From: a virus
Reading direction: 5' to 3' (one strand)
IMG/VR virus record: IMGVR_UViG_3300010334_002806
Coordinates: 1-50,308 of that record
DNA length: 50,308 nucleotides
This document shows positions 11,409-29,590 of this stretch, piece by piece; position 1 is the first letter of the stretch, and the number at the start of each line of letters is the position of its first letter. Position numbers and translations under genes: made by a program. Under the pieces are notes generated by a model that searched no databases, was not told the DNA's origin, and worked only from the letters and a program-made list of their open reading frames with translations.

Positions 11409-14400
11409 ATGATTAGAAATAAGAAAATATTTAATGGTGGAATTGATTCGGATAATAGCTTAGAATTATTAGATGATGCCAAGTATTTAAGAATAATGAA
11501 TGGCAGAGTAGGTAATACACAATATGGTAGAAATAATAGAGTTGAAAATTCATTAGGCACAACTGCAATAGCAAATACAACATACCCATCAGGAGGTACA
11601 AATATGAACATTGGCAGTTGTATAGATACAGAGGGTCAAAGATTATTGTGGGCTAATTACAATAGTGCAGGAAACCATGGAATATATTGTTATGACCTTA
11701 GAGCAAGTATAGTATATGCAGTATTGTATAATAGTCAAGTTACGGGTGGATTAAACTTTAGTAAAGATTATAGAATAGATAGAAATTGTAAAGTAATAAA
11801 TGGTTTATTTTATTTTAGTGATAACTTAAATGAACCAAAAAAAGTAAATATTGATAGTGGTATAAAATTAAACCAACCATCATATACAACAACAGCAGTA
11901 GCTTATACTTCTCCATTAGATTCATCTGATATTGCATTAATTAAAAGACCTCCAACATATAGCCCTACAATAGAAAAATTATATAATGGCTCTTATGTAA
12001 ATAATTTTATAGCAACAAATTCATGGCAATTTGCTTGGCAGTATATTTACTTTGATGGGGAAACATCTGTATTAGGCGAATTTAGTGTGTCTTCTAAAAT
12101 GAATTTAGTCGAATTAGGGGTAGCAGAAGTATATAATTATATAAATTGCAAATTAAGTTTAAGCGAAATAATACCACAAACGGTAAGAATATTAAGATTA
12201 GTTTCAAAAAACCAATTAACAAATGGATATAATGTAATTAAAACTTACGATAAATTAATAGATTCAACACCCTTTACTAATCATAATAGTGGTACAACAC
12301 AAATATCGTTTGATTATTATGGAGATATTATCGGAGAAACAATAAGCGATTCAGATACAGTAAAACCTTATGATTCTGTACCATTATTAAGTAAAACATT
12401 AGAATTAGCAACAAGTAGATTATTTTTAGGAAACAATTTAGAAGGATATACCGCACCAACAAGTACATCATTATCTTATAGTCAAACATCTGGAACTGTT
12501 ATAAGCAGTCCATTAACTATAACAAGACAAGATGGCCAAACGGGAAGTCCACCTAGTATTACGGGTTCTTATAAATTATTAATGACAGGTACACCACAAA
12601 TAGGAGATATTATATCTCTTTTAATTACGGTATCTGATACAACACAAAGTCCAACAGTAAAGGCGGTTACTATAAATTACACAGTAGCAAGTACAAATAT
12701 TTTAACAGTAGAAGCAGCATTAAGAGCAGCAATAGTAGCAGAAGGAACAACATCTGCATATCATATTACGGTTACCGACCAATCAAGCCCTAACCCATTA
12801 GCAGTAAAATTTACAACAAATACGGGTAATAGTAAGGTATTGTTTATTAATCCAACTATAACTTATATTAGTCCAACAACTGCAAATAAAAAATTTTTTA
12901 AAAATGAATCTTCATATCAATTAGGAATAACCTTTTATGATAAGGCAAGAAGAAAAAGTGGAATAGTAACAAATAGTGGTTTAATATTTCAAACACCACA
13001 AAAAACATATACAAATAATACCGCAACATTAACGGTAAATTGGTCTTTGAGTAATACAAGTGCATTAACTGAAATACCTACTTGGGCTTATTATTATTCA
13101 ATATGTAGAACTTTAAATTTAAAAACTAGATATTTTATAGATTCATTAACAAGTGATGATTTTTATGCAAATAAGAATAGCAGCGGTGTGTATGAATATA
13201 CTAAGAAAGTATTTGATACAACGGTTGTGGCAGTTGCTATTGATACTACCACATTATTACAATCTAAATTGGGATATACTTATACAGACGGAGATGTATG
13301 TTTATTAATAAATTCATCCACCGGAGCAAGAAATGAATTAAGAATTATTGGCACAGATGGGAAATATATTTTGTTAAGCCCTAAAGATATTGACGATTTA
13401 ACAACAGCAAGTTTTTCGATTGAAATTTATACCCCATATATTAAATTAGCAGATGAGCCATTTTATGAAGTAGGTAATATTTACCCCATAACAAATGCGG
13501 GTTTATCAGGAAGGGTATATTCTACATTATCGGGAACATTAGATGGAGATACATTTATATTTCAAAGATTATACAATAGTAATGGATATTATGTTGAAGC
13601 TATGTCCCCAAATGATGATTATTATAAAAATTGGTTAACCGATGATGGATTTATTAATTATGTGACATTATTAGGTCAAAAAAGAAACGAACACGAAATT
13701 AGGTATTCTAATGTATATGCAACGGGTACTCAAAACAATGGTTTAAGCACATTTGAGGCCCTTAATTACAAAACTACTCCATTAGGTCTAGGAGCAATAC
13801 AAAAACTACAATTGGCCTCTAAAACATCAGAACAAGGGGTTATTATGTTGGCTATATGTACTTTACAAACCGCATCTTGTTATTTGGGAGAAGTGCAATT
13901 AGTTGGTTCTTCTGCAAATTCTTCTTTAATTCAAGATACCGCAGTTATAGGAACAATTAATGTTTTAAAGGGTATGTTTGGCACCACCTCGCCCGAATCA
14001 GTAGTAGAATATCTTGGTAATGTATTTTGGTATGACTTAAACAATGGGGCCATAGTTCAATACGCTTCTAATGGTTTATCTTCAATTGGATCGTTTGGTA
14101 ATGATAGATTATTTAAAAATTACGCAAAAGGTTATTTGGCAACAAGTTCAGCAACCTTAGACACACTTAATGGATTTCATCATTTACCAACATTTATAGA
14201 CCCATTTCATAGAGAATTTAATGCAACATTAATAGGTTTAATAGCCGAAAGTAGTGCTCCCGTATTACCTAGTTACGATACAATACCATCTTATGCAAGT
14301 TCAATAATTAATAGATTTGATATTAATGACAATTTAGCTAAAACATTGGCTTTCAATATTATAGAAAACAAATGGGTATCTGATTTTCAATTTATAGCAG

Positions 14401-14882
14401 AACAATATGATTATTTTGAAAATAGATTATTTGCTTTTAAGAATGGCACTTTATATGAAATGAATACAAATAGTTCCTCATGGAACACTTGGTTTGGCAC
14501 CCAATACCCATTAAGAATGTGTTGGGTAGTAAACAAACCCGTAAGTAGCGTAAAAGATTTGTATGAGATGTCTTTAGAGGGGTCAAATGCTCCTAATTTT
14601 ACGGTAATTTACAATACTAACCCAAATATTCAAATAACTGATTTAACAATAGATGATTTTTATAATAGAGAAGGTGTATTTTATGCTAGTTTATTTAGGG
14701 ATAGGTTATCTCCAAATACTACGGGAGATGTAAATGATAAGCTATTAAAAGGGGATATTATGGTTTCACAAGTTCCATTAGTAATGACCGAATTTCAACA
14801 ATATTCTTCATTAATTTATATTAATTTTGTTAATACGGGATTTAATGTTTCAAGAGGACAAAATTCTATATTAATATCATAA
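11409..14882 (+). CDS. Tail nozzle / P22 gp10-like stabilisation protein (1157 aa)
   Basis: A long beta-rich virion protein. The first 60 residues (NGGIDSDNSLELLDDAKYLRIMNGRVGN) and the C-terminal region near residues 985-1030 (AFNIIENKWVSDF, ENRLFAFKNGTLYEMN) match the pattern of the large P22 gp10-like stabilisation proteins of crAss-like phages. These extend the tail tube below the adaptor ring and plug the portal after packaging. Residues about 350-500 look like an inserted Ser/Thr-rich beta domain. It directly follows the adaptor genes. The role is assigned by family resemblance and location. Confidence 0.65.
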   Translation: MIRNKKIFNGGIDSDNSLELLDDAKYLRIMNGRVGNTQYGRNNRVENSLGTTAIANTTYPSGGTNMNIGSCIDTEGQRLLWANYNSAGNHGIYCYDLRASIVYAVLYNSQVTGGLNFSKDYRIDRNCKVINGLFYFSDNLNEPKKVNIDSGIKLNQPSYTTTAVAYTSPLDSSDIALIKRPPTYSPTIEKLYNGSYVNNFIATNSWQFAWQYIYFDGETSVLGEFSVSSKMNLVELGVAEVYNYINCKLSLSEIIPQTVRILRLVSKNQLTNGYNVIKTYDKLIDSTPFTNHNSGTTQISFDYYGDIIGETISDSDTVKPYDSVPLLSKTLELATSRLFLGNNLEGYTAPTSTSLSYSQTSGTVISSPLTITRQDGQTGSPPSITGSYKLLMTGTPQIGDIISLLITVSDTTQSPTVKAVTINYTVASTNILTVEAALRAAIVAEGTTSAYHITVTDQSSPNPLAVKFTTNTGNSKVLFINPTITYISPTTANKKFFKNESSYQLGITFYDKARRKSGIVTNSGLIFQTPQKTYTNNTATLTVNWSLSNTSALTEIPTWAYYYSICRTLNLKTRYFIDSLTSDDFYANKNSSGVYEYTKKVFDTTVVAVAIDTTTLLQSKLGYTYTDGDVCLLINSSTGARNELRIIGTDGKYILLSPKDIDDLTTASFSIEIYTPYIKLADEPFYEVGNIYPITNAGLSGRVYSTLSGTLDGDTFIFQRLYNSNGYYVEAMSPNDDYYKNWLTDDGFINYVTLLGQKRNEHEIRYSNVYATGTQNNGLSTFEALNYKTTPLGLGAIQKLQLASKTSEQGVIMLAICTLQTASCYLGEVQLVGSSANSSLIQDTAVIGTINVLKGMFGTTSPESVVEYLGNVFWYDLNNGAIVQYASNGLSSIGSFGNDRLFKNYAKGYLATSSATLDTLNGFHHLPTFIDPFHREFNATLIGLIAESSAPVLPSYDTIPSYASSIINRFDINDNLAKTLAFNIIENKWVSDFQFIAEQYDYFENRLFAFKNGTLYEMNTNSSSWNTWFGTQYPLRMCWVVNKPVSSVKDLYEMSLEGSNAPNFTVIYNTNPNIQITDLTIDDFYNREGVFYASLFRDRLSPNTTGDVNDKLLKGDIMVSQVPLVMTEFQQYSSLIYINFVNTGFNVSRGQNSILIS

Positions 14883-14901: not shown

Positions 14902-15339
14902 ATGAGCAATTATATAAGTTATGCTTTAATAAAATATGCTTTTAAAAATGATGATGAAATAGGAAAATATTGTGACCCTGATTATAAAGACAAAAGCATA
15001 AAAGAATTATGTTTTAGCTTTTTTATAAAATTGTTAGAATATGAAAAAAAATTTGGTAATTGTGATTTTGATGATATAGTAATAGATGGAAAGATAGTAG
15101 GTTTTGTTTTTTGTTGTAATGATATGTTGGTTAGTTTTGGGGTAAACAAAAAATATAGAACAAAAGAGAATTTAGAAAAAGTTTTTGAATTTATAAAAAG
15201 TAAATTTAAAACTGATTTTATATCATATATGTGGGATAGAAATAGTAGAGCAATAAATTGGTTAAAAAAATGTGGTATGAAAGAAGAAGAAAGTAAAATA
15301 AATAATGTAACAAAATTAAAATATAGTTTATGCCAGTAA
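14902..15339 (+). CDS. GNAT-like N-acetyltransferase (145 aa)
   Basis: The middle and end follow the GNAT layout: IDGKIVGFVF (strands 2-3), MLVSFGVNKKYRTKENLEKVFEFIKSKF (strand 4, the acetyl-CoA pyrophosphate loop and helix 3) and YMWDRNSRAINWLKKCGMKE (the RA--W--KCGF-like signature of helix 4). It would transfer an acyl group from CoA to an amine; the substrate is unknown. Similar small GNAT proteins occur among podovirus structural genes. Its end overlaps the next internal-protein gene by 10 bases. Confidence 0.7.
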   Translation: MSNYISYALIKYAFKNDDEIGKYCDPDYKDKSIKELCFSFFIKLLEYEKKFGNCDFDDIVIDGKIVGFVFCCNDMLVSFGVNKKYRTKENLEKVFEFIKSKFKTDFISYMWDRNSRAINWLKKCGMKEEESKINNVTKLKYSLCQ

Positions 15340-15941
15340 CAACAGGAGCAATAATAGGTGGTATAGGTGCATTGGGAAAAGTATTTATGGGGGTTAAGCA
15401 AAATAATTTGGCTAACCAAATAAACCCACAATATGTACCATATCAAAAAAATCAATTTGCAACACAATATCTAGGAGCAGCACAAAATTTATATAATTCA
15501 AGGATGCCAGGAGCGGCTAATTTTACAGCTAATATACAAAAATCACAAGCAGACCAAATAGCTAAGATACAAAGAAATGCAACTGATTCTAGTACATTAT
15601 TGGCATTAGGTTCAGCAACGCAAGGACAATCTAATCAAGCATATTCGGATTTATTGGGAAAAGAAGGTCAATTCAAGTCGGGGATGTTGGGCCAATTAGG
15701 TAATGCAACACAAATGGAAATATCAGAAGGGGATAAGGTATATAAAGATATGCTAACAAAATACCAATTAGATAGCCAAGCGCAGGCCGCATTAAGACAA
15801 TCGGGTACAAATAATATATTTGGTGGAGTAAGTGACATAGCAGGTGGTTTAATGCAATATGGTAATTATCAAAATGCAGCAGGTGCAAATACTAATGCAG
15901 CGGATTATAATAAAATATTAAAAGCCAAATATGGCCTATAA
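15330..15941 (+). CDS. Putative internal virion protein (203 aa)
   Basis: Starts with a Gly-rich hydrophobic segment (TGAIIGGIGALGKVFMG), followed by Ala/Gln/Asn-rich helices (residues 30-150) and a final AGGLMQYGNYQNAAGAN part. This composition and size match T7 gp14-like and other small ejection proteins that form a channel in the outer membrane. It precedes two larger internal-protein candidates, in the same small-to-large order as T7 gp14, gp15 and gp16. No sequence motif proves it. Confidence 0.5.
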   Translation: MPVTTGAIIGGIGALGKVFMGVKQNNLANQINPQYVPYQKNQFATQYLGAAQNLYNSRMPGAANFTANIQKSQADQIAKIQRNATDSSTLLALGSATQGQSNQAYSDLLGKEGQFKSGMLGQLGNATQMEISEGDKVYKDMLTKYQLDSQAQAALRQSGTNNIFGGVSDIAGGLMQYGNYQNAAGANTNAADYNKILKAKYGL

Positions 15942-15962: not shown

Positions 15963-17486
15963 ATGCCAAGTCAAGGTAGTTTAGGAAGTTATGCAGTCAA
16001 TTTGCCGAGTATTTTTCAATCTCCTGCGGAAGCGTTGCAACAAGCAACAGTTCAAAAAGAAAGAAATACCCAACAACTTCAACAACAAGGAGAAAAGTTA
16101 CAAGAAATGGGTATGGCCCAAGCAAAATTAGCAAGGGAAGAAGCAGCTAAAAAACAAGCGTATTTACATGATAATTTAGACCCTTCAAAATATGTTACGG
16201 GCACTCAAATGATAGATGCCTCATCATCTCAGCAAATTAATGATTTGATAAAAAGATCCACAGAAGGCGATTTAAAAAATATGAGTGATTCTGATTTAAA
16301 ACAATATTTAGACAATCAAATGCAAAATATTAAATTGGCAACAACTAAGTTTAAAGCAGAAGAAAAGTTATTAAATGAAATTAAAACAAAAAAAAGATTA
16401 GAAAATCCTGGATTTGATGAAAATTTATTTAATATTGAATATAAAAATGAATTATCTAAAAGGTTATTAAATGAAGATGGAACATTAAATCCAAACCCAA
16501 ATGATTCAGAAATTTTAAAAAATATTGAAAATCCGGGATACATGGCTAAATTTATAACTAGCCATCCTTCATTTTATAAATTATTAATGGATAAATCTAC
16601 AAGTGAAGAAGCTAAATTTAAAATAGGTACACCCGAAAGTAATGTAACACAAGAGGGTCGTATTGGTTTTTGGGAAGATATTAATCTGCCAACACCTGCA
16701 AGTGGGTTTTATCCAAGAGGAAGTAAATTAGAATTAGTTAAAAAACTTAGTAATGGACTTATTTCAACACCGCAAGGTGATGTATCAGTTCCAGTTGTAA
16801 CTAATGATGTTTATGAAAAATTAATATCAACTCCTAAAGTAGAAAATGAAATTTATTCACTTGCTTTTCATAAATTTAATGGTCAACCCAATAGTGAAGG
16901 TTTGGGAAAAATAGCTTTTAATAAAATGTCAGAAGAAGATAAAAATGTAGCATTAAAAAACGTAGCAGCAGAATTTATACATAAAGTATCTCAAAATAAA
17001 TTAAGAACCGGAGAAGTATATAATAGACCCGTAACCAATGTAAATATGGGAGAGCAAAAAGGAATGGAAGGATTAAATTGGGTAAAAGGATTTAAAGGTG
17101 CAATAGAATCTGGCGATTACAATGCAGCAATACAAGAAGCAAGAAAATTATTTGCAGGTAATGGTTCTTATCAATTTGATAATATGAAAATTGCAGATGA
17201 TGGTGGTATTAGAGTTGAGTATAGTAAAGATGGAGAACCGGAAAATGATTTAATAATAAAACCAAATGACCGAAATTATTACTACAAAATAGCCAATTTA
17301 TATCAAAAAGTAACGGGTAGTGATGTTAAAATGGAAAAATATGTAATAAGCAATAAAGTGAATTTGACTAATAATTCAAAGGCAAATAGTAGTACATATA
17401 CAATTAATGGAGAAAAATATACACATAAAGAATTGATAGATAATGGATGGACAGAAGATGGTATAAAGAAACTGAAAAAAAATTAA
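15963..17486 (+). CDS. Putative internal virion protein (507 aa)
   Basis: The N-terminal 80 residues are Gln-rich and helical (SPAEALQQATVQKERNTQQLQQQG), followed by about 120 residues of charged helix and a mixed C-terminal half. It lacks signal peptide and membrane helices. The place between the 203-aa and the 1787-aa internal proteins and the coiled composition suggest an ejection-channel component. The C-terminal 40 residues (TYTINGEKYTHKELIDNGWTEDGIKKLKK) resemble a small peptide-binding or capping module found at the ends of virion proteins. Confidence is limited. Confidence 0.45.
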   Translation: MPSQGSLGSYAVNLPSIFQSPAEALQQATVQKERNTQQLQQQGEKLQEMGMAQAKLAREEAAKKQAYLHDNLDPSKYVTGTQMIDASSSQQINDLIKRSTEGDLKNMSDSDLKQYLDNQMQNIKLATTKFKAEEKLLNEIKTKKRLENPGFDENLFNIEYKNELSKRLLNEDGTLNPNPNDSEILKNIENPGYMAKFITSHPSFYKLLMDKSTSEEAKFKIGTPESNVTQEGRIGFWEDINLPTPASGFYPRGSKLELVKKLSNGLISTPQGDVSVPVVTNDVYEKLISTPKVENEIYSLAFHKFNGQPNSEGLGKIAFNKMSEEDKNVALKNVAAEFIHKVSQNKLRTGEVYNRPVTNVNMGEQKGMEGLNWVKGFKGAIESGDYNAAIQEARKLFAGNGSYQFDNMKIADDGGIRVEYSKDGEPENDLIIKPNDRNYYYKIANLYQKVTGSDVKMEKYVISNKVNLTNNSKANSSTYTINGEKYTHKELIDNGWTEDGIKKLKKN

Positions 17487-17510: not shown

Positions 17511-20500
17511 ATGGCAGAAGAAGTACAAGATATTGCTATTCAAGAAGGAACTACACCACAAACTAGAAAGGTGCCAAGTATGGATGAGGTATTAGGCACA
17601 AAGACTAAAAAAGTGCCAAGTATGGAAGAAGTTCTTGGTAATGAAAAAAAAAATTCTTTAAGTTCTCAATACGTATCTTCTCCTACACAATCTCCATTAG
17701 CATCACCTAATTTTAGTCAAGGAGAAAAGATGGCTAAAGTGGGTTTTACCATTCCGTCTGCTGCTAATATTCAACATACACCGGAACAGCAAAATTGGTT
17801 ATTAAATACTATATCATCATTAGATAAGGGGTTTTATAAAAATCTAATAGGAAATCCAACAAAAGGATTAGGTACCGCATTGCAAGGAGCAACTAAAAAA
17901 GCTATGGGTGGTAAGGGGGAGGGGTTAATAAGCAATGCATTAATTAAGTTTGGTGATTATTTTAATAAAACTATTGATGAATTAACACCGCAAGATGAAG
18001 AATTTAAAAATAGTTTATCAGACCAAGTTGCACAAGCATTGGGTACTGTTGGTTCTATGGTTTTAACGGGAGCGGCTAGTGGAATGGGAAAAGGAAGTGC
18101 ATCATTAATGAATGCATCACAAGTACCAAAAGCTAATGTAGCAATAAATGCTGCTAAAGAATTTGGTAAAGATTTAATAAATCCCGTATCAGTTAGCGCA
18201 GGTTTGTCTATGGGGCAATCTGAATTTGATAAAGCAAAACAATTAGGGGCTACTGATGACCAAGCATTTGAGGCATTTTATAAAAACGCAGCAGTAGGTT
18301 CTATTTTAGAACAAATACCAACAATGCAATTTCTTAAAAGATTTAATCAATCTACGGGTGGCGGTATTGCTAATTACATTAAAACTAAGGGAATTGCTGG
18401 TATAACGGGTGGATTGGAAGAATTATCCACAGAGGTTTTACAACAATTATATGCAAATAAAACTGCAAAAGATATTTACAATATAAACCAAGATTTATTT
18501 GAAGGAGTAGCAGAATCGGGTGGTATTGGTTTTGGGGTTGGATTTTTATTAAATGCCCTAGGTGCCAATGCAAAAATATTAAGAAAGCAAGGCAATAAAG
18601 TTGAAGCAGAAGTTATAAAAGACCAAGTAGATTCATTCAAATCTAAAATGGAAAATGCATCAAAAGAAGAAGATAAAATAGAACAAGTTAAACAACAAGA
18701 GCAACAAAAAAACGGAATTGATAAAAGACAAGAACAATTTGATGTATTTTCTCAATTAGCATCATCAAATCCTAATTTTAAGTTTACTGATTCATTTGAT
18801 GAATTTAATAATAAAATAAATAGTGAGGGTGGAGAACAATATTTAAAAGATTTATACAATCAATCTAAGCCATTTGTACAAACAGGGGATTTAGGAGAAG
18901 TAGAAACAAATACCGAAGATAACTTTGTTAATTATTTAAAGCCTAAAGAAGAAGTTGAACCAATTGAAGAAATATCAGTATATCATGGAGGTAGTATAGA
19001 TGATTTATCTAAAGCAGAAGGTGGGTTATTTGTATCTGAAGACAAAAATCAAGCAGCAGCTTATGCTAAAGGTAATAATGGCAATGTACAAGAATTTAAA
19101 ATAAATAAGAATGACATATCAGATGAAGCTGAGGTAAGAAAAATTATAGTTGAATTAGGGTTAAAATCTAAACAAGAAGGTTGGGATTTGTCAAAAGAAT
19201 TAATGCTTCATGAGATATTAGACCCTAGGTTTGAAACATCTTTAAGTGATGCAGATTTAAGTAAATTATATACTGAATTAGAAAAAAGAGGCTATAAAGC
19301 TATTAAAATGTCAGCTACTGATGTGACAGGCAAAGAGTTTAGTGTAGATGATATATTAGTTTTGAATCCAAAAGAAACATTAAAAATAGAAGTTAAACCA
19401 ATTGAAGAACAATTAAAACCAAAAGAAAATGCCGTACAAAAGTCAAGCACAGAGGGGGTACTTCCACTCACACCAAATGGAAATGGAGAAGAAGGGGGTA
19501 AGCGTGAAGGAATGGGACAAGGAGTCCAAGGGAAAGGAATTACCCAAGAAGGTGAAACCACACAACCCGAAAGTACTACGAAAGAAAATGTAATACCACC
19601 ACCACCACCAATACAAGAAGATGGTGAGAAAAAAGAGCCATTAAGAACAAATGAAAAGGCTATACTTAAAAGATTATTTGAAAGTAAAAATATATCAGAA
19701 GATGTAAAAAACAAGTTTAAAGATAATTTAAAGTATAAAACAGCTAGTAAAGAAGAAGCTAGAAATGTAGCCAAAGAATTTGTAAAAGAATATGGTTCAG
19801 AAGATGCAGTTACTTTAGCAGAAGCGGGTAAATTTGATGGTGATGTAAATTCATTCATATTTGCAGAAGCTATTGATAATGCAGCTAGAAAAGAAATGGA
19901 AGCCAAAACAGAAGAAGAAAAAATAAAGTACGCTTCTGAATGGGCAGATTATGCTATGAGGTATGACGAAGCAGCTAGAAAAGGGGGTAGATTTATTTCA
20001 GCAATTTCTGACTTTTATAAGAAGTCGCCATTGGGGGTGTTAATGGTAGAAAAAGCAAATAGAGAAAATTCTTTTAAAGAGTGGTTTAAAAACAAGGAAA
20101 AATCTTACAAAGAGGTATTTGATGAATTAATCAAAGAACCAGAATTTAAAGATTTAATGGATGAAAAAGTACAATCAGAATTAAAAGAAGAAAGAAAAAA
20201 AACAAGAGCAGATAAAAGACAAAAGATTGATGACTTTTTTGAAAAAGCTAAATTAAAAGGCAATAATTTATACGCAGTACCAATACCACCGCAAGTAATT
20301 AATAGTGCATTAGAGGTAATGAAACAAGCAGTATTAGCAGGTGAATCAATAGTTAATGCAGTTGGTATGGCAGTTGAACATATTTCTAAAGAAGTTAAAG
20401 ATTGGGATAAAGAAAAGTTTAAAAAAGAATATGAGGAAAAATTAAGTCAATTTGAAACAAGTAAAACAACTAAAACAGAATCGGAATTAACTAAGGATAA

Positions 20501-22874
20501 GCAAGATAAAATGCTTGATAGTTTTAGAAAGAAGCTAAAGGGATTAAATGAAGAACAAAAAGCAGATGTTATTAGGAGGTCATTTAAAAAATTAGTAGAG
20601 AATGGTGCATTGGAATATGATGACTTTAAAAAAATTATACAAGATGTAATGGGTAATGGTGAATTAACCCAAGAAGAACAAGATAAAATTAAAGATTTAG
20701 TTACCAAAATAAATTCAGTAGAAGATGTTGCAAAATCAATAAGAGAAGATGATAACAGGTCGGAAGAAAATCTAAAAAAATATAAAGAAGCTAAAAAAGA
20801 AGCAGAACAAGCATCTACTGAATTAGGAAAAATGGTTTATAATAAAATAAATTTGACTAATAGGGTATTATCAATAATGCAATTAAATACATTAGGTATT
20901 CCTTCATTGATAAATAACCCAATATTTAACATTTGGAATCAATCAACTGTTAGATTTCCAATAGGGGTGCAATTAAGTGTTATAGACCAAATTTTATATG
21001 GTGGAAGTAAAGTATCTAATAAGCTATTTGGTACAAGTATTTTATATCCCGAAAATAATATATTTATATCGCAAAAGTCATTTTTTAGCAAATTGGGAGA
21101 AGGTGCAAAGCAATCTACTGAACAATTATTTACGGGTTTAACCAATGCGGATTATTTTCAAAAAGAAGTTAGAAGTTCACAAATACATCCATTTACATCT
21201 ATAAAAGAATTATGGGATTGGAAGTTTAATGGCAAACCATTAACAAAAGAACAAGTAGCAGATAAATTATTACAAGCAGGACCAGGTTTTACAGCAGAAA
21301 TCGTAGCAAGATTATTAAATATAGGTGATAAGCCACAAAGATATGCAGCAGAAGGAGCACAAGCCGCAGTATTTGCTAAAAAATTAGGTTTAAAGGGAGT
21401 TGATTTAAAATATTTTATGGAGTTTCCAAAAGAGGAAGCATATAGAGCATTTAAAAAACAAGGATTATCAGATGAAGTAGCAATGCAAAAAGCAGAAGAA
21501 ATGCTACAAAGAATAATTAAACAAGGTGAAGAATCCACATTTCAACAAAATAGTTTATTAAATGATGCCATACAAGGTGCTTTTAAACCTTTTGGCAAAT
21601 TTGGTGACGTTATTAAGACATTAAATATGCCTTATGTTAAGATACCTTTAAATGCTTTTTGGTCGGTATATAATTTAATTAACCCAGAAGTCGCATTTTT
21701 GCAATCAGCAGTTTATGGTTTAAAAGCTATAAAATCAAAATCATCAGCAGATATTCAAGAATCTAAAAAATGGTTTGCTCATGCAGTTACGGGAATGGCA
21801 TTAACGGCAATAGTTGGTGCATTGGCTAAGGCAAAAATAATTAATTCTGACAATGATGATGAAACTACCAAAAAAGAAAGAATGGGTGAAAAATCATTTG
21901 AACAACAAAATAGCATTAATGTATCAAAATTAAATGCATATTTAAGAGGCGAAAATCCTGATGACGTAAAGGATGGTTTAAATGTAGATTTAAAATGGTT
22001 TGGTAATGTTGGAAATGTAATGAATGTTACATCTCAAAAATTAGAAAATATGACACCTGAACAAAAGAAAAATGGTATGTCATATATGGAAGATATGATG
22101 GAAAGACAATCAGAATCAGCTAAAGAATTTGTTAATAATGGAGTATTTGCAAACACATCAGGTTTATTAACGGCTGCAACTAAAGGAGGACAATTTTGGG
22201 ATGCTTATGGATTAAATTTAATTAATATGGGAGCCAATGTTATTCAACCTGCAATGTTTGCTCAAATGTCAAGAGCACAATTACCATATTATTCTCAACA
22301 AAAAGCAGATAGTTTTATGAAAGAACTTGAAAATAGTATGCTTACTCGTTCAGGAACATTAAGAACCATAATGAAAAAATACCCACCATCACAAAACAAT
22401 ATATGGGGCGAAAGAATGGATAGAAAAGACAATGTAATAATGAAGCTATTTGGTATGAGCAAAACAGATCCCGATAACTTTGCACAACCAATATATAAAG
22501 ATTATAAAAGAACAGATAATACCAAGTTTTTTCCACCTTCAATAAAACCAGAAGTTAATAATAAACCAATTACAAACGACCAATTAAATAAACTAGAAGT
22601 ATTGGTAGGTCAAAAAAGAAAAATGTTAGTCGCACCATTTATAAATGATGGAGCAACTTTAAAAGGATTTAAAAATGTTTATAGTAAACTATCAGATGAT
22701 GATAAAGTAGATGCATTAAATATAATTTATAAAATGGCTTACAATGAAGGAGAAAAGGATTTTGTATCTTTATATCCCGATTTCTATGCATCAAAAAAGA
22801 AAACAAAAGAACAAAAAAAAGAAACAAAAGAAAATAGAATATTTAAAAAATCATTAACAAAATTTTTAAAATAA
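17511..22874 (+). CDS. Giant internal (ejection) virion protein with ADP-ribosyltransferase-like domain (1787 aa)
   Basis: The N-terminus carries a short repeat, KVPSMDEVLG and KKVPSMEEVLG (residues about 20-43). Residues about 165-355 have Gly/Ala-rich hydrophobic stretches and a GGLEELSTEVLQQL segment, as in large phage ejection proteins. Residues about 486-628 look like an ADP-ribosyltransferase: SVYHGGS, then GLFVSEDKNQAAAYAKG, and a final GYKAI plus DILVLNPK. A Pro-rich linker (about 695-705) and long charged helices follow. A hydrophobic stretch lies near 1428. The gene sits just before the terminase genes. As in T4 Alt or N4 virion RNA polymerase, an enzyme inside an ejected protein could act on the host at once; this is inference. 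Confidence 0.6.
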   Translation: MAEEVQDIAIQEGTTPQTRKVPSMDEVLGTKTKKVPSMEEVLGNEKKNSLSSQYVSSPTQSPLASPNFSQGEKMAKVGFTIPSAANIQHTPEQQNWLLNTISSLDKGFYKNLIGNPTKGLGTALQGATKKAMGGKGEGLISNALIKFGDYFNKTIDELTPQDEEFKNSLSDQVAQALGTVGSMVLTGAASGMGKGSASLMNASQVPKANVAINAAKEFGKDLINPVSVSAGLSMGQSEFDKAKQLGATDDQAFEAFYKNAAVGSILEQIPTMQFLKRFNQSTGGGIANYIKTKGIAGITGGLEELSTEVLQQLYANKTAKDIYNINQDLFEGVAESGGIGFGVGFLLNALGANAKILRKQGNKVEAEVIKDQVDSFKSKMENASKEEDKIEQVKQQEQQKNGIDKRQEQFDVFSQLASSNPNFKFTDSFDEFNNKINSEGGEQYLKDLYNQSKPFVQTGDLGEVETNTEDNFVNYLKPKEEVEPIEEISVYHGGSIDDLSKAEGGLFVSEDKNQAAAYAKGNNGNVQEFKINKNDISDEAEVRKIIVELGLKSKQEGWDLSKELMLHEILDPRFETSLSDADLSKLYTELEKRGYKAIKMSATDVTGKEFSVDDILVLNPKETLKIEVKPIEEQLKPKENAVQKSSTEGVLPLTPNGNGEEGGKREGMGQGVQGKGITQEGETTQPESTTKENVIPPPPPIQEDGEKKEPLRTNEKAILKRLFESKNISEDVKNKFKDNLKYKTASKEEARNVAKEFVKEYGSEDAVTLAEAGKFDGDVNSFIFAEAIDNAARKEMEAKTEEEKIKYASEWADYAMRYDEAARKGGRFISAISDFYKKSPLGVLMVEKANRENSFKEWFKNKEKSYKEVFDELIKEPEFKDLMDEKVQSELKEERKKTRADKRQKIDDFFEKAKLKGNNLYAVPIPPQVINSALEVMKQAVLAGESIVNAVGMAVEHISKEVKDWDKEKFKKEYEEKLSQFETSKTTKTESELTKDKQDKMLDSFRKKLKGLNEEQKADVIRRSFKKLVENGALEYDDFKKIIQDVMGNGELTQEEQDKIKDLVTKINSVEDVAKSIREDDNRSEENLKKYKEAKKEAEQASTELGKMVYNKINLTNRVLSIMQLNTLGIPSLINNPIFNIWNQSTVRFPIGVQLSVIDQILYGGSKVSNKLFGTSILYPENNIFISQKSFFSKLGEGAKQSTEQLFTGLTNADYFQKEVRSSQIHPFTSIKELWDWKFNGKPLTKEQVADKLLQAGPGFTAEIVARLLNIGDKPQRYAAEGAQAAVFAKKLGLKGVDLKYFMEFPKEEAYRAFKKQGLSDEVAMQKAEEMLQRIIKQGEESTFQQNSLLNDAIQGAFKPFGKFGDVIKTLNMPYVKIPLNAFWSVYNLINPEVAFLQSAVYGLKAIKSKSSADIQESKKWFAHAVTGMALTAIVGALAKAKIINSDNDDETTKKERMGEKSFEQQNSINVSKLNAYLRGENPDDVKDGLNVDLKWFGNVGNVMNVTSQKLENMTPEQKKNGMSYMEDMMERQSESAKEFVNNGVFANTSGLLTAATKGGQFWDAYGLNLINMGANVIQPAMFAQMSRAQLPYYSQQKADSFMKELENSMLTRSGTLRTIMKKYPPSQNNIWGERMDRKDNVIMKLFGMSKTDPDNFAQPIYKDYKRTDNTKFFPPSIKPEVNNKPITNDQLNKLEVLVGQKRKMLVAPFINDGATLKGFKNVYSKLSDDDKVDALNIIYKMAYNEGEKDFVSLYPDFYASKKKTKEQKKETKENRIFKKSLTKFLK

Positions 22875-23229: not shown

Positions 23230-25275
23230 ATGGGTAAAAAAATAAAAATATACGGAACGGAAATAGAATTGCCCGAACAACCTCCTATTGAAGAAATAGA
23301 AAATTGGGGAGAAAATGATACTAAAAATCAATTTTGGAAAAGATTAGATTTGCCTAATTTTTTTGAATATGTTGAATATGATAAAGAAGAAAATGTATTA
23401 CTTACAAAAGAACAAGAAATATATGCACGAGAGGAAGTAAGAAGGTGTAAGCAAGGGTTTTGGTTTATGAATAATGGTATTCCAACTTATATAACGGGTA
23501 AAAATTATTTTTATTTACAATGGTGGAAATTAGAAGATGATATATATGCAGATTATAGAGATACAGATAGAAGATATTATTTGTATTTAAACCATTGGGA
23601 AAACATGGCGTGGTGTTTGGGTATAATCAGAGGTAAAAAACGTAGAGAAGGAGCAACATCACAAGCAACTTCTAATTTAGTATATGAAGCAATATTTTTT
23701 AAAAATAGTAATTGTGGATTAACAAGCAAAACAGCAGTGGATGCTGGAACTGCATTTACAAATATGGTTTCTTTTGGTTATAGGCAGTTACCCGTTTTTT
23801 TAAAACCAAAACAAATAAATAATAAAGATAGTGTTACCAAATTGGTATTTGCACATAAATCTATAGATATAAAAGATGGAAAAGGAAATGCAATAGATAA
23901 TAATACAGGGCATCGTTCAAGTATTGATTTTCGTGCCCCTAGTCCAAACGTATACGATTCAGGTCGTTTAAGTAGAGGTCTTTTTGATGAAGGTGGTAAA
24001 TGGGAAATAGATTTTTCAAACTTTATATCAAAAGTAAGTAAGACATTAGTAAAAGGTGCTAAAAAAGTAGGTTTTATGGAACTTCCATCAACTTGTAATA
24101 GTATGTCGCAAGGAGGACAAGCGTATTTTGATGAATGGATTAAAACAAAAAAGTTACAAAAAAATAGAACTGCAAATAGATTAGTTTCTTATTTTAGTTC
24201 ATCGTATGATGGGTACGAAGGTTTTATTGATAAATATGGAATGAGTGTTATTAATGAACCAACGGAAGAACAATTTGAATATTTGGTAGAAAAATATGTA
24301 GGAGCAACTGAATTAGATGAAGAAGATATTAAAATGGGGTCAAAACAATATCTTTTAAACAAAAGAAAGGATTTAGAAGGGAAATCATTGGAGGAGGAAA
24401 TTCGTATGAATCCATTTGATGAAAAAGAAATGTTTATGCTTCGAAATTCTAATTGTCATTTTGATGCAGTATTATTAAATGATTTGTATGAGATTGCAAA
24501 AATGAATGAAAAAGAAGTAATAGAATATGGCAATTGGACTTGGAAAGATGGAATACCTTTTACGGAAGCAATATGGGAAACAACTTCAAAAGAATACGCA
24601 AGATGGCATAGAGCAAAGAATTTTAAGATACCTCAAGGAGATACTTATACTAAAAGAGGAAATTTATTTATACCAAAAAATCCCGTTCAGTTTATTATGG
24701 GATGCGATCCGTTTCAAAATTCAATAGTAGAATCAGGAGAAGGGTCAAAAGCAAGTAGTGGAGTATTAAATAGGTATGATATTGGTAATAATGACCCCGT
24801 ATATGATATGATGTTTGTATGTAAATATCACGCAAGGCCAAAAATGGTAGAATTATTTCATAATGATATGGCTTTACAATGTTTTGCTTATGGAGGCCAA
24901 ATGTTAATAGAGGCAAAAATGGATGGTGGATTAAGAAAGTATTTTGAAGATAATTACCTAGCCGCATTTATGATAATGATGCCTGGGAAATCTACTTATG
25001 GTATAGACCCAAATTCAGATAATAAGGCCCTAATGGTAAACCTATGGGAACAATATATTTTAACACATGGAAAAGAAGGTAAAATAATATATCCCGAAGT
25101 AATTGATAGCAAATACGATGGATTGCTTAAATTTGATGTAACCGATACGGAAAAGTCAGATGAAGTTATGGGCTTGGGGTGGACTTTGGTAGCCGATTAT
25201 TACAAAAAAGCCAATTTTAAAAAAATAAATAAAACAAATATTGAAGATTTCTTTAAAATGAAAAAAGTATCATAA
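23230..25275 (+). CDS. terL: Terminase large subunit
   Basis: 681 residues. ATPase: an atypical Walker A GKKRREGATS (residues 135-144) and Walker B GLFDEGGKW (D253, E254). Nuclease (RNase H fold): FIMGCDPF (Asp near 492), MLIEAKMDGG (Glu near 560) and GIDPNSDNKALM (Asp near 592-597). The motor pumps DNA into the prohead through the portal and cuts the concatemer. The KRREG-T form of Walker A recalls terminases of crAss-like phages. The stop shares a base with the next gene start. Oddly, the portal gene is 6 kb away, with a sugar-gene cassette between. Confidence 0.85.
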   Translation: MGKKIKIYGTEIELPEQPPIEEIENWGENDTKNQFWKRLDLPNFFEYVEYDKEENVLLTKEQEIYAREEVRRCKQGFWFMNNGIPTYITGKNYFYLQWWKLEDDIYADYRDTDRRYYLYLNHWENMAWCLGIIRGKKRREGATSQATSNLVYEAIFFKNSNCGLTSKTAVDAGTAFTNMVSFGYRQLPVFLKPKQINNKDSVTKLVFAHKSIDIKDGKGNAIDNNTGHRSSIDFRAPSPNVYDSGRLSRGLFDEGGKWEIDFSNFISKVSKTLVKGAKKVGFMELPSTCNSMSQGGQAYFDEWIKTKKLQKNRTANRLVSYFSSSYDGYEGFIDKYGMSVINEPTEEQFEYLVEKYVGATELDEEDIKMGSKQYLLNKRKDLEGKSLEEEIRMNPFDEKEMFMLRNSNCHFDAVLLNDLYEIAKMNEKEVIEYGNWTWKDGIPFTEAIWETTSKEYARWHRAKNFKIPQGDTYTKRGNLFIPKNPVQFIMGCDPFQNSIVESGEGSKASSGVLNRYDIGNNDPVYDMMFVCKYHARPKMVELFHNDMALQCFAYGGQMLIEAKMDGGLRKYFEDNYLAAFMIMMPGKSTYGIDPNSDNKALMVNLWEQYILTHGKEGKIIYPEVIDSKYDGLLKFDVTDTEKSDEVMGLGWTLVADYYKKANFKKINKTNIEDFFKMKKVS

Positions 25276-25898
25276 TGGAAAATTGGATTAATTTTTTTGA
25301 TAAGATATATGTTATAAACCTAGCCAAAAGAACTGATAGGTTATTGCAAATTGCAGAAGAATTAGAGAGGTATAATATACCATTTGAGTTAGTTACCGCC
25401 ATAGAGCAAGAAGATGGAGCAGAAGGGCTTAAAATGACAATGCAAGGCATATTTAAGAAATCCATTGAAAAAAGGTATGAATCCATATTAGTTTTTGAAG
25501 ATGATGCTTATTTTGTAGAAGGGGTAGAATATACTAACGAAGTGTTAAATAATGCCATGGATCAATTACCCAAATATTGGGATATGCTATTATTAGGGGG
25601 CCAACCGGTAATGGGTTTTACCGGCCAAATATCCCCTAATTTATTATCGTTGGAAGATTGTTATGCCACACATTCAGTAGCTTATAGCATTAATTGCATG
25701 AAAAGAATAATGGCCTTGGGTATGGAATCACCAATAGACAATTGGCTAGTAAAACACATTCAAACACAAAAAAGAACATATATAACATACCCATTATTAG
25801 CAAGCCAAAGGGCAGGAATTAGCGACATAGGTAAGGCATATATAGATTGGAACCCATTTATAATAAACAAATACAACCAAAAATTAAACGAATTATGA
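25275..25898 (+). CDS. GT25-family glycosyltransferase
   Basis: 207 residues. The start IYVINLAKRTDRLLQIAEEL (VINL then R19, D21, R22) and the acidic ILVFEDDAYF (E75, D76, D77) are the signature of the LPS-type GT25 family, which adds galactose or glucose from a nucleotide sugar to a cell-surface or protein glycan. The next segment, WDMLLLGG, also fits. It is the first gene of an eight-gene cassette and starts on the last base of the terminase stop codon. No membrane helix. Donor and acceptor are unknown. Confidence 0.85.
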   Translation: MENWINFFDKIYVINLAKRTDRLLQIAEELERYNIPFELVTAIEQEDGAEGLKMTMQGIFKKSIEKRYESILVFEDDAYFVEGVEYTNEVLNNAMDQLPKYWDMLLLGGQPVMGFTGQISPNLLSLEDCYATHSVAYSINCMKRIMALGMESPIDNWLVKHIQTQKRTYITYPLLASQRAGISDIGKAYIDWNPFIINKYNQKLNEL

Positions 25899-26593
25899 GG
25901 CAATTATCAATTGTAATCCCATCTTGGGAAAGAGTGGATATGACCATAAATAGCTTTAAAAAAGTACACAACGACAAAAGAGTACATTCTATTGTTATAG
26001 TGGATGATGCAAGTTCAATGGCGACTTACAAAGAATTAGAGGCAAAATGTAGCCAATTTTCAAAAGTAAGTTTATATCGAAACCAAAATAACAAAGATTG
26101 CTATGCAAATAAATTATTAGCAGTAAGCTATTCACCAACTGATTTTTGCATATTACTAGATTCTGATAATCAAATAGATAAGTATTATATTGATGCTATT
26201 TTTAATCAAGAAGATTGGGATTGGGAAACCATATTTCAACCTACATTTGCAAGACCAATGTTTGATTTTAGGGCATTTAATGGATTGACAATTAAGAAAT
26301 CCAATGTGGCAAAATATATAGCAAAACCATTGTTTGATACAGCTTTAAATGCCATGAACTACTTTGTTAACAAAAACAAATACATAGAAGTTTGGGATGG
26401 TAATGTTGACCCACATAGTTCAGATTCAATATTTCAAAATTATAATTGGCTAAACGCAGGGTATAAAATAAAATTTTTAGAAGGAATGGAATATGAACAT
26501 TTGGTACATGATGGAAGTCATTATAAAGCAAATTCGCATAAATCACCTGAATTTTATCAAGAAATATTACAAAAATTAGGAGAATTAAGGTAA
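25895..26593 (+). CDS. GT2-like (GT-A fold) glycosyltransferase
   Basis: 232 residues from the ATG at 25895, which overlaps the previous stop (ATGA). The open frame extends upstream to 25847, but that part overlaps the previous gene. Motifs: LSIVIPSWERVDMTINSF, IVIVDDAS (D37, D38) and CILLDSDNQID, the DxD metal-binding loop (D89, D91). It would transfer a sugar from a nucleotide donor. The length is short, so it is probably a soluble, single-domain enzyme. It belongs to the sugar cassette. Confidence 0.75.
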   Translation: MRQLSIVIPSWERVDMTINSFKKVHNDKRVHSIVIVDDASSMATYKELEAKCSQFSKVSLYRNQNNKDCYANKLLAVSYSPTDFCILLDSDNQIDKYYIDAIFNQEDWDWETIFQPTFARPMFDFRAFNGLTIKKSNVAKYIAKPLFDTALNAMNYFVNKNKYIEVWDGNVDPHSSDSIFQNYNWLNAGYKIKFLEGMEYEHLVHDGSHYKANSHKSPEFYQEILQKLGELR

Positions 26594-26630
26594 TTAATTT
26601 AATATTGCATTGGTTATAACACAACTAATT

Positions 26631-27380
26631 ATGCCACATTGTACTTTTATACCTGCGGGGAGGCTTGGGAATTGGTGTTTTGAATGTGCTACTGCGATAG
26701 CATATAGTTTAAAGCATAATTTAGATTTTACTGTTCCAATCGATACGGATAATATAAAATGGAATCCTATATATTGTTTGCATTTGGCAGATTTAAGCTA
26801 TAACCCATATTTAGATAAGGTGGATTTATGGGAAAATAGTCATAGTTATGAAGAATTGCCATTTGATGAATCATGGAGGCATAAAAATATAGTTATACAG
26901 GGTTATAGGCAATCAGAAAAGTATTTCAAAGAGTATAGACAAGAAATATTATACCTATTTAACTTACCTTATAAGTTAACCCCAATATGTAGTATTCACG
27001 CTAGATATGGAGATTATTTAACCATAGAAGGTAAGCATATAGTAATAAACGAAGAATACTTGACCAAGGCAATGGATATGATAAAAATAAAAACAGGACT
27101 TACTAGATTTAAGGTTTTTTCAGATGATATACCATATTTTAAAAAACAATTAGGACACTTATACGATTTTGAATATAGTGGAAATACTGATGAATTAAGC
27201 GACCTAATAGAAATAAGTTGTTGCCATAGTCAGATTAATTCTAGTAGCACTTTTTCTTGGTGGGGAGGATGGTTAAACCAAAATAAAGAAAAGGTTGTAA
27301 TTACCCCCAAAAAATGGTTTCAAGATGGGCATGGTTTAGACACAAAAGATATAGTACCAAACGAATGGATAAAAATATAA
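26631..27380 (+). CDS. GT11-family (alpha-1,2-fucosyltransferase-like) glycosyltransferase
   Basis: 249 residues from the ATG at 26631; the frame is open further from a TTG at 26610, but the protein starts with the family pattern only after the ATG. Visible GT11 motifs: GRLGNWCFECATAIAYSL (residues 10-27, usually GxLGNQMFQYA), HARYGDY (123-129, the donor phosphate-binding HxRRGDY), KVFSDDIPYFK and NSSSTFSWWGGWLN (203-216). GT11 enzymes normally use GDP-L-fucose. Here no GDP-fucose synthase is nearby, but a GDP-mannose 3,5-epimerase is. The Gln to Trp change in GNQMF and the first Arg of RRGD replaced by Ala might affect specificity. Confidence 0.8.
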   Translation: MPHCTFIPAGRLGNWCFECATAIAYSLKHNLDFTVPIDTDNIKWNPIYCLHLADLSYNPYLDKVDLWENSHSYEELPFDESWRHKNIVIQGYRQSEKYFKEYRQEILYLFNLPYKLTPICSIHARYGDYLTIEGKHIVINEEYLTKAMDMIKIKTGLTRFKVFSDDIPYFKKQLGHLYDFEYSGNTDELSDLIEISCCHSQINSSSTFSWWGGWLNQNKEKVVITPKKWFQDGHGLDTKDIVPNEWIKI

Positions 27381-27382
27381 TT

Positions 27383-27988
27383 ATGAGTTACGCATTAGAA
27401 AACATAGATATAGGCGGCAAAATGTTTGATTTTAAAGAATATTATGACATGGTTGCAGAAAGACTGCCTAATAATTGTAAAATAGGCGAAGTGGGTATAG
27501 CTAATGGCAAGTCGGCAATTTATTTGGCAGAAAAAATATTATCATTAGGGAAAAAAATAGATAGATTTGTTTTAATTGATTCAATGCAATATGGCGGTAA
27601 TTATCAAATACAAACAATTATTAATCATTTAATAAAAAGCGGAGTAGGACAACATTGCGAATTGATTATAAAAAATAGCCTTGATGCAAGTTGCGAATTT
27701 CCAAATGATTATTTTGATTATGTTTTTATAGATGCTTCACACGAATACGAATTGACAAAAGCTGATATTAGACTTTGGTATAGAAAAGTAAAAGGAGATG
27801 GCTTTTTAGCAGGTCACGATTATAACGCAGATGAGGTAAATAGAGCAGTTGATGAAGTATTATCAAAAGAAATTGTTTATGTTAATCAAAATTTTTCAAC
27901 TGAAATATTAAAATTAATAGATACTGAAAATGATTTTGGAGTTTGGGAATATACAATAAATTGGCAAACTAAAAAAATAATAAAATAA
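27383..27988 (+). CDS. Class I SAM-dependent methyltransferase (Methyltransf_24-like)
   Basis: 201 residues from the ATG at 27383, two bases after the GT11 stop. The SAM-binding loop is IGEVGIANGKSAIYLAEKI, followed by RFVLIDSMQ (acidic residue at the end of strand 2) and FDYVFIDASHEYELTKADI, then GFLAGHDY. This is the pattern of methyltransferases that methylate sugars or small molecules next to glycosyltransferase genes. The acceptor is unknown; a sugar hydroxyl is likely from context. The last base of its stop overlaps the next start. Confidence 0.75.
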   Translation: MSYALENIDIGGKMFDFKEYYDMVAERLPNNCKIGEVGIANGKSAIYLAEKILSLGKKIDRFVLIDSMQYGGNYQIQTIINHLIKSGVGQHCELIIKNSLDASCEFPNDYFDYVFIDASHEYELTKADIRLWYRKVKGDGFLAGHDYNADEVNRAVDEVLSKEIVYVNQNFSTEILKLIDTENDFGVWEYTINWQTKKIIK

Positions 27989-28950
27989 TGAAAACAGCAT
28001 TAATAACTGGTTCTAGTGGGTTTATAGGTGGTCATTTAACAAAATATTTAAAAAATAAAGGATATTTTGTAATTGGTGCAGATATAGAACAACCTAAATA
28101 TGAAAAACCTACAATATTTTATAATTATGATTTAAGGAATCAATTATTATGTAAATATATATTTCAAAATCACAAAAACATTGATGAAGTATATAATCTT
28201 TCATGCATTATGGGCGGCATGGGGTTTATAGGGAATAAATCCCATAGTTATGATATAATGGTTGGTAGCACTCAAATAGTATCAAATATAATAGAATGTA
28301 GCATAGAGTTTGGAGTTAAAAAATCTTTTTATAGCAGTTCTGCTTGTGTTTATAATATGCGCCTACAAGAAGGTACCGATAATGTATCATTAAGGGAATC
28401 AGACGCCTATCCTGCTATGCCTGATTTAATGTATGGATGGCAGAAATTGCAATCAGAATTGATGTATCAATCAGCTTATGAACAACACAATTTAAACGTA
28501 AGAATTGCTAGATTTCATAATATTTTTGGCGAAGAAGGAATATGGTTTGGCGGGAAAGAAAAATATCCTGCCTCAATTTCAAGAAAAGTGGCAGAAGCAA
28601 AAGATGGAGATGAAATAGAGGTATGGGGTGATGGGAAACAAACAAGAAGTTTTTTACATATTAATACTTGCATTGAGGGTATAATGAAATTAATGGAAAG
28701 TGATTATAATCAACCATTGAATATTGGAAGTGATGAATTAGTAAGTATTGATGAAGTCGCAAATATGGTAATTAAATTATCCGGAAAAAATATTTTAATA
28801 AAACATGATTTAACTAAGCCACAAGGAGTAAGAGGTAGAAATAGTAATAATGAGTTAATTGAAAAAGTTTTAAAATGGAGGCCAAATACAAAATTGATAG
28901 ATGGCTTAACTACTACATATAATTGGATAAACAAACAAGTAAATAAGTAA
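27988..28950 (+). CDS. GDP-mannose 3,5-epimerase
   Basis: 320 residues, an extended short-chain dehydrogenase. The NAD loop is GSSGFIGGH (residues 8-16). The match to plant-type GDP-mannose 3,5-epimerase is detailed: MGGMGFI, SSACVY with C120, YGWQK (Y149, K153), RFHNIFGEEGIWFGGKEKYPAS with K192, WGDGKQTRSFLHI and GVRGRNS with R282. These positions line up with C145, Y174, K178, K217 and R306 of the Arabidopsis enzyme, with almost no gaps. It should convert GDP-D-mannose to GDP-L-galactose (and GDP-L-gulose) with catalytic NAD. A functional sugar donor for the GT11 neighbour is inferred. Confidence 0.9.
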   Translation: MKTALITGSSGFIGGHLTKYLKNKGYFVIGADIEQPKYEKPTIFYNYDLRNQLLCKYIFQNHKNIDEVYNLSCIMGGMGFIGNKSHSYDIMVGSTQIVSNIIECSIEFGVKKSFYSSSACVYNMRLQEGTDNVSLRESDAYPAMPDLMYGWQKLQSELMYQSAYEQHNLNVRIARFHNIFGEEGIWFGGKEKYPASISRKVAEAKDGDEIEVWGDGKQTRSFLHINTCIEGIMKLMESDYNQPLNIGSDELVSIDEVANMVIKLSGKNILIKHDLTKPQGVRGRNSNNELIEKVLKWRPNTKLIDGLTTTYNWINKQVNK

Positions 28951-28954
28951 TAAT

Positions 28955-29590
28955 ATGATGATACCATTTGACTACTTGGTCGATAAATATAAAATAGATA
29001 TAAAAGGAGTCGCACACTTTGGCGCAAGCTATGCGCAAGAAAGATTTGAATATGATAAATATTGTAAAGGTAAAGTTATATGGGTTGAGGCTATTCCTAA
29101 TGTGTATAATGAACTTGTAGAAAACTTAAAATCATTCACAAATCAAAAAGGCATTAACGCTTGTTTAAGCAATGTAGATGGTCAAGAAATAATTTTTAAT
29201 GTTTCAAATAATGAAAGTCAAAGTTCATCAATGTTAGAATTAGGTACACATTCTATAATTCATCCCGAAGTGCATTATGTTGAAAAATTATCAATGATAA
29301 CAAATAGAGCAGATACATTATTTACTAAAGAAGATTTTAAAGATATAAATTTTCTTAATGTAGATTTACAAGGAGCAGAACACTTAGCCATAGAAGGAAT
29401 GGGTGATTTGATTAAAAATATTGAATGGGCTTTATTAGAAGTAAACAAAAAAGAAGTTTACAAAGGTTGTATGACAATAGATAATATGGATTATTTTATG
29501 TTACAAAGGGGATTTGAAAGAGTAGAAACAGGAGTTTTGGTAGCTGATTCATGGACTGATGCACTTTATAAAAGAACTTTTAAAGTATGA
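28955..29590 (+). CDS. FkbM-family methyltransferase
   Basis: 211 residues. Typical FkbM signs: VAHFGASYAQERFEYDKYCKGKVIWVEAIP (SAM loop and strand-2 acidic residue), VSNNESQSSSML, then FLNVDLQGAEHLAIEGMG and WALLEVN. FkbM enzymes O-methylate sugars and other natural products. It starts at either of two consecutive ATG codons (28955 or 28958). The stop overlaps the next gene (ATGA). It is the second methyltransferase of the cassette, so two different positions of the glycan may be methylated. Confidence 0.85.
   Translation: MMIPFDYLVDKYKIDIKGVAHFGASYAQERFEYDKYCKGKVIWVEAIPNVYNELVENLKSFTNQKGINACLSNVDGQEIIFNVSNNESQSSSMLELGTHSIIHPEVHYVEKLSMITNRADTLFTKEDFKDINFLNVDLQGAEHLAIEGMGDLIKNIEWALLEVNKKEVYKGCMTIDNMDYFMLQRGFERVETGVLVADSWTDALYKRTFKV

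What the first reader, a model, noticed from the sequence alone, without database searches (positions are those of the whole stretch)
18968..19395. ADP-ribosyltransferase-like domain buried in a 1787-aa ejection protein
Residues about 486-628 show YHGGS, GLFVSEDKNQAAAYA and a final GYKAI...DILVLNPK, in the order of bacterial and phage ADP-ribosyltransferases. The protein lies in the position of T7 gp16-like ejection proteins, so the enzyme could enter the cell with the DNA, as T4 Alt does. It might reprogram host transcription or translation or block defence.
Basis: partly seen in the sequence, partly recalled or inferred. Interest (0 to 1): 0.72.

Follow-up and report, generated by a model that had tools for sequence, protein, structure and literature searches.

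The report
Exchangeable ART-like cassette in phage protein
A giant virion-type protein of a virus that probably infects Bacteroidota bacteria carries a small domain related to ADP-ribosyltransferases, bounded by short DNA repeats as if it were a swappable cassette, but the acidic residue found in every reference relative is a lysine here, so it may bind rather than modify, or work in an unusual way.

Summary
The motifs are real and in the stated order in the 1787-aa ORF 17511-22874. A profile of 16 polyvalent-protein-type ARTs (Pfam ART-PolyVal type) scores the module 16.3 bits against at most 9.5 for 2849 shuffles; profile-profile comparison agrees (P 2.7e-5, 106 columns). His492, Phe507 and Tyr518 fit. 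But the Asp of the GYDG motif, 16/16 in the references and the likely 'D' of the published H-Y-D site, is Lys596 here and in both relatives found; HG[TS] is HGG. Selection is purifying (dN/dS 0.14-0.27), so the module is used, but canonical transfer is doubtful. The T4 Alt comparison holds for delivery only: gene order matches Cellulophaga phage phi38:1 gp097-gp101, all annotated structural. New here: the module is a 438-bp in-frame unit between two near-identical 21-bp direct repeats that occur nowhere else in the window. It recurs (74-83% identity) in two phages with otherwise different backbones, and in a sister protein the same slot holds another ART-PolyVal, lacking its His, that is cleanly absent in closer relatives. 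Verdict: new variant of polyvalent-protein ARTs, possibly a pseudoenzyme.

The parts
17511..22874 (+). 1787-aa polyvalent/ejection-type protein; C-terminal 635-1787 is the conserved backbone, N-terminal part is variable
18951..18971 (+). left 21-bp direct repeat (linker EVEPIEE)
   Evidence: only two matches in the window with up to 3 mismatches, none in 100 shuffles; 21/24 bases identical to the right copy
18972..19388 (+). ART-PolyVal-like module between the repeats
18984..18986 (+). His492 of YHGG (family strand-1 His)
19029..19031 (+). Phe507, strand-2 aromatic position (Tyr/Phe/Trp in references)
19062..19064 (+). Tyr518, conserved Tyr of the helix after strand 2
19296..19298 (+). Lys596 in GYKAI, where all 16 reference ARTs have Asp
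19350..19352 (+). Asp614 before the last strand (DILVLNP), conserved in all three family members; position variable in references
19389..19409 (+). right 21-bp direct repeat (linker EVKPIEE)
11409..14882 (+). 1157-aa virion structural protein, first gene of the syntenic block
   Evidence: phrog_14478 E 5.7e-38; similar to phi38:1 gp097
14902..15339 (+). 145-aa protein, weak match to an internal virion protein family
   Evidence: phrog_308 E 0.0018
15330..15941 (+). 203-aa gene, in the position of phi38:1 gp099
   Evidence: gene order only
15963..17486 (+). 507-aa gene, in the position of phi38:1 gp100
   Evidence: gene order only
23230..25275 (+). terminase large subunit
   Evidence: phrog_6681 E 2.6e-68

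Best explanation
The module is a divergent member of the ART-PolyVal (H-Y-D, Tox-ART-HYD2-like) group, carried as an exchangeable cassette in a polyvalent protein that is packaged in the virion and enters the cell with the DNA. Its NAD-contacting half (His492, aromatic 507, Tyr518) is kept, while the acidic catalytic residue is replaced by Lys596. Most likely it binds NAD+, ADP-ribose or a host protein, or has weak or substrate-assisted transfer, rather than acting as a standard mono-ADP-ribosyltransferase. Cassette gain and loss probably runs by recombination between the near-identical linker-coding repeats on either side. Shown by computation: sequence relationship, residue states, repeats, present/absent slot. 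Inferred: fold, virion packaging, ejection, binding role, recombination route.
For: ART HMM 16.3 bits versus 9.5 for shuffles; profile-profile probability 74%, P 2.7e-5, 106 columns aligning GYKAI with GYDG, control against terminase 0.1%; Asp 16/16 in references, Lys 3/3 in this family; purifying selection; a Pfam-level ART-PolyVal in the same slot of L004 (33.2 bits, cut-off 31.2); flanking repeats and their uniqueness; syntenic structural block in phi38:1; H-Y-D definition in PMC5512222.
Against: No fold could be computed. The C-terminal half, where the Lys lies, aligns by the GYxxI anchor and not by a strong score; one global alignment put GWDL (residue 557) there instead. Several PARPs lack the Glu and are still listed with mono-ART activity (table in PMC7955679), so loss of the acid does not prove inactivity. 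Virion presence rests on synteny, not on proteomics of this phage.
Confidence: 0.58

Rival explanations
1. An active mono-ADP-ribosyltransferase that modifies a host protein early in infection, using substrate-assisted catalysis or a displaced acid such as Asp614 or Asp604.
For: His and Tyr kept, module under purifying selection, Asp614 and the Asp of ATD invariant in the family; polyvalent ARTs are predicted to modify host proteins.
Against: The family Asp is Lys in 3/3; HG[TS] changed to HGG; the Asp614 position is variable in the references.
Confidence: 0.27
2. The C-terminal part (about 588-632) is a remnant or degenerate Hjc/PD-(D/E)xK nuclease, not ART.
For: Pfam Hjc 17.2-17.6 bits, E 0.004-0.005, with a D...ExK pattern.
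Against: Below the 21.1 cut-off; the match is lost when the EVK linker is cut off and is absent in L016, whose linker lacks ExK; EVKPxE is a linker repeated around other modules; the Hjc model also rings in 11 of 14 control genomes.
Confidence: 0.07
3. Ordinary structural spacer domain of a virion protein with no ligand; the ART resemblance is remote ancestry only.
For: Active-site loss here and in L004 (His replaced by Thr) in the same slot; the cassette is dispensable in sister proteins.
Against: His492 and Tyr518 kept under purifying selection.
Confidence: 0.08

Closest known systems
ART-PolyVal (Pfam PF18760; polyvalent-protein ARTs, Tox-ART-HYD2 clade, Iyer et al. 2017 PMC5512222)
   Same: YHG strand, aromatic strand 2, helix Tyr, GYxxI and final strand in order; embedded in a giant phage protein
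   Different: Sub-threshold to Pfam (14.7-16.4 bits against 31.2); Asp replaced by Lys; HGG instead of HG[TS]; long helical insert
T4 Alt
   Same: Proposed virion packaging and co-injection
   Different: R-S-E active site and other clade (PMC5512222); Alt is known to act on host RNA polymerase
Roseovarius Plymouth podovirus 1 vRNAP ART (CBX87992)
   Same: Prototype polyvalent ART in a giant ejected protein; SGLFFT...DYAK resembles GGLFVS...AYAK
   Different: Has GYDG; fused to an N4-like RNA polymerase
Cellulophaga phage phi38:1 gp097-gp101 (Pervagoviridae)
   Same: Same order and similar sizes of five genes ending in a giant structural protein
   Different: gp101 has no detectable sequence similarity to the window protein and no ART match
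Polymorphic-toxin cassettes
   Same: Exchange of effector domains by recombination
   Different: Here internal, in-frame and bounded by linker-coding repeats; no immunity gene seen

Membership tests
ART-PolyVal PF18760 | Score over Pfam cut-off 31.2 bits | tested here: not met
   15.3 bits window, 14.7 L002, 16.4 L016
ART-PolyVal PF18760 | Profile-level similarity beyond chance | tested here: met
ART-PolyVal / Tox-ART-HYD2 | His in strand 1 | tested here: met
   His492 in all three
ART-PolyVal / Tox-ART-HYD2 | Tyr in strand 2 | tested here: inconclusive
   Phe507 there; references also show Phe/Trp; Tyr518 in the next helix kept
ART-PolyVal / Tox-ART-HYD2 | Asp (GYDG) at strand 5 | tested here: not met
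   Lys596 in 3/3 against Asp 16/16; equating the published D with GYDG is my inference
ART superfamily | ART fold | not testable with these tools
R-S-E ARTs (T4 Alt) | Arg, Ser and Glu (Q/E-x-E) site | tested here: not met
   His not Arg at strand 1; no [QE]xE before the last strand in any of the three
Polyvalent protein | Several unrelated domains in one giant phage protein | tested here: inconclusive
   only the ART-like module is recognised; modular exchange seen
Ejected virion protein | Found in particles and delivered to the cell | not testable with these tools
   synteny with annotated structural genes only
Hjc PF01870 | Score over cut-off 21.1 and conserved D...ExK | tested here: not met
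   17.2 bits, lost without the linker; absent in L016

The most novel reading that the evidence does not exclude
These phages keep short, near-identical, in-frame DNA repeats that encode inter-domain linkers, so that effector cassettes in an injected giant protein can be swapped by homologous recombination; ART cassettes in this slot have repeatedly lost one active-site residue and serve as binding modules.
Probability: 0.35. Interest if true: 0.68.

Novelty: new variant of a known kind. Interest (0 to 1): 0.46.

Why it matters
Giant virion proteins of phages of Bacteroidota are mostly uncharacterised. A cassette with clear edges gives a directly testable unit for asking what phages inject, how such proteins gain and lose domains, and whether ART-derived modules without the acidic residue act as NAD+/ADP-ribose binders, for instance against NAD-dependent defences.

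Tried and rejected
Direct relatives: none in phages, none in genome contigs by A1; five viral-contig scans aimed at the module gave the same two relatives besides the near-identical contig. Profile A2 in 395 genomes of one phylum gave 20 matches at E<=0.1, no more than chance; those read were unrelated, such as a zinc-finger/primase-like protein. Hjc nuclease reading rejected. A second phylum search for PF18760 found nothing and proves nothing. Sequence homology of the giant proteins of isolates to the backbone: not detectable. PDB by sequence: no ART. In one search one scored variant of the module with a changed residue was included; it is not used as evidence.

Full report
Observation. The ORF 17511-22874 encodes 1787 aa. 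The motifs lie where stated: Y491-H492-G-G-S, G505-L-F507-V-S, Y518, G594-Y595-K596-A-I, D614-I-L-V-L-N-P.

Is it ART? Pfam reports only a sub-threshold ART-PolyVal hit in the window protein (14.5 bits for a sub-fragment; 15.3, cut-off 31.2). Two other phage contigs carry the module at 83% and 74% identity (L002, L016). I collected polyvalent-type ARTs from Roseovarius podovirus RPP1, Dinoroseobacter and Roseobacter phages, Pseudoalteromonas Y3, Pseudomonas F116, Dolichospermum Dfl-JY45 (two), the crAss-like phages cr10_1 and cr130_1, a Helicobacter prophage, a Salmonella phage, bacterial genomes and L004. An HMM of 16 of these, without the window family, scores the window module 16.3 bits and the two relatives 16.3 and 13.3; the best of 2849 scored shuffles is 9.5. 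Profile-profile comparison of three against twelve sequences gives probability 74%, P 2.7e-5 over 106 columns; the terminase control gives 0.1%. The N half carries the score (15.3 bits alone). Among 300 shuffled C halves attached to the true N half, 2 reach the true score for the window, 9 for L016 and 44 for L002, so the C half is placed mainly by its GYxxI anchor.

Active site. Iyer et al. (PMC5512222) give the polyvalent ARTs a His in strand 1, Tyr in strand 2 and Asp in strand 5. In my alignments His is present in 14 of 15 references with that region, and Asp of G[YFNH]D-type motifs in 16 of 16 (one search lists His and Asp as nearly invariant). I infer that this Asp is the published one, since the position before the last strand is variable (E, T, H and others). 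The window family has Lys there in 3 of 3 (AAA or AAG codons) and HGG for HG[TS]. Pairwise dN/dS is 0.14-0.27, so this is not a decaying reading frame. L004's ART, in the corresponding slot, keeps Asp but has VFTGT for the His motif. Two different ARTs in one slot have thus each lost a different active-site residue. Several PARPs without the Glu appear with mono-ART activity in a published table (PMC7955679), so inactivity is a prediction only.

Hjc rival. The C-terminal part also matches Pfam Hjc at 17 bits (cut-off 21.1). The match disappears when the construct ends before the linker and is absent in L016. The apparent ExK is the EVKPxE linker, which also borders other modules.

Cassette. 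In the whole 50-kb window the 21-bp sequence GAAGTTRAACCAATTGAAGAA occurs twice, at 18951 and 19389, with no match in 100 shuffles at the same mismatch level. The copies are 438 bp (146 codons) apart and frame the module. In L002 the two edges agree in 22 of 24 bases, in L004 in 20 of 24, in L016 in 14 of 24. L006, L008 and L005 share the right flank of L004's module (87-96%) and lack the module, and L006 and L008 also share the left flank; in L006 and L008 the alignment blocks overlap by 14 residues at the junction, as expected if one repeat is left behind. Across 12 such proteins the linker motif occurs 29 times against 1.2 in shuffles, and 33 of 163 collapsed similarity ends lie at linkers against 4.6% at random (the ends are not independent). 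The backbone 635-1787 is 65-67% identical in L004, L005, L006 and L008, and about 51% over 706-1787 in L007, while L002 shares only the module with the window and L016 the module with short flanks. Exact matches to the repeat pattern exist in 11 viral stretches, not followed up. An alternative to exchange is that the repeats are just recently duplicated spacer sequence.

Delivery. The block 1157-145-203-507-1787 aa has the order and similar sizes of gp097-gp101 of Cellulophaga phage phi38:1 (about 1324-132-200-549-1691 aa), all annotated structural protein, and of a block in Flavobacterium phage elemoF ending in a 3694-aa structural protein. The 145-aa protein weakly matches an internal virion protein family. 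No sequence similarity of the giant proteins was found. Terminase relatives lie in Flavobacterium and Cellulophaga phages and in Bacteroidota MAGs, hence the host guess.

Mechanism. I commit to a virion-borne, probably injected, ART-derived module that keeps ligand contacts and probably lacks standard transfer; an active enzyme remains at 0.27. Novelty lies in the missing acid and the repeat-bounded cassette; polyvalent ARTs themselves are known.

Noticed in passing
L004 residues 1074-1188 (locus 5488-5832): Bona fide ART-PolyVal in the same slot, with Thr in place of the family His (VFTGT) but GYDG kept; absent in close relatives L006 and L008.
   Followed up: yes
L005 residues about 29-135: A segment with DLRGKGLAGEAY looks by eye like a GNAT acetyltransferase in a neighbouring slot; Pfam gave no hit.
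   Followed up: no
L066/L076 (PP438435.1): Two tandem ART-like domains in one giant protein of Dolichospermum phage Dfl-JY45.
   Followed up: partly
L067 (MT774382.1 96649-97005): ART-PolyVal-like coding stretch without annotation just after a 13-kb gene of crAss-like phage cr10_1.
   Followed up: partly
25275-30931: Run of glycosyltransferase, epimerase and related genes directly after the terminase, with similar genes after the terminase in relatives L004-L008.
   Followed up: no
L084-L092: Exact matches to the linker repeat pattern in other viral contigs; not examined for cassettes.
   Followed up: no
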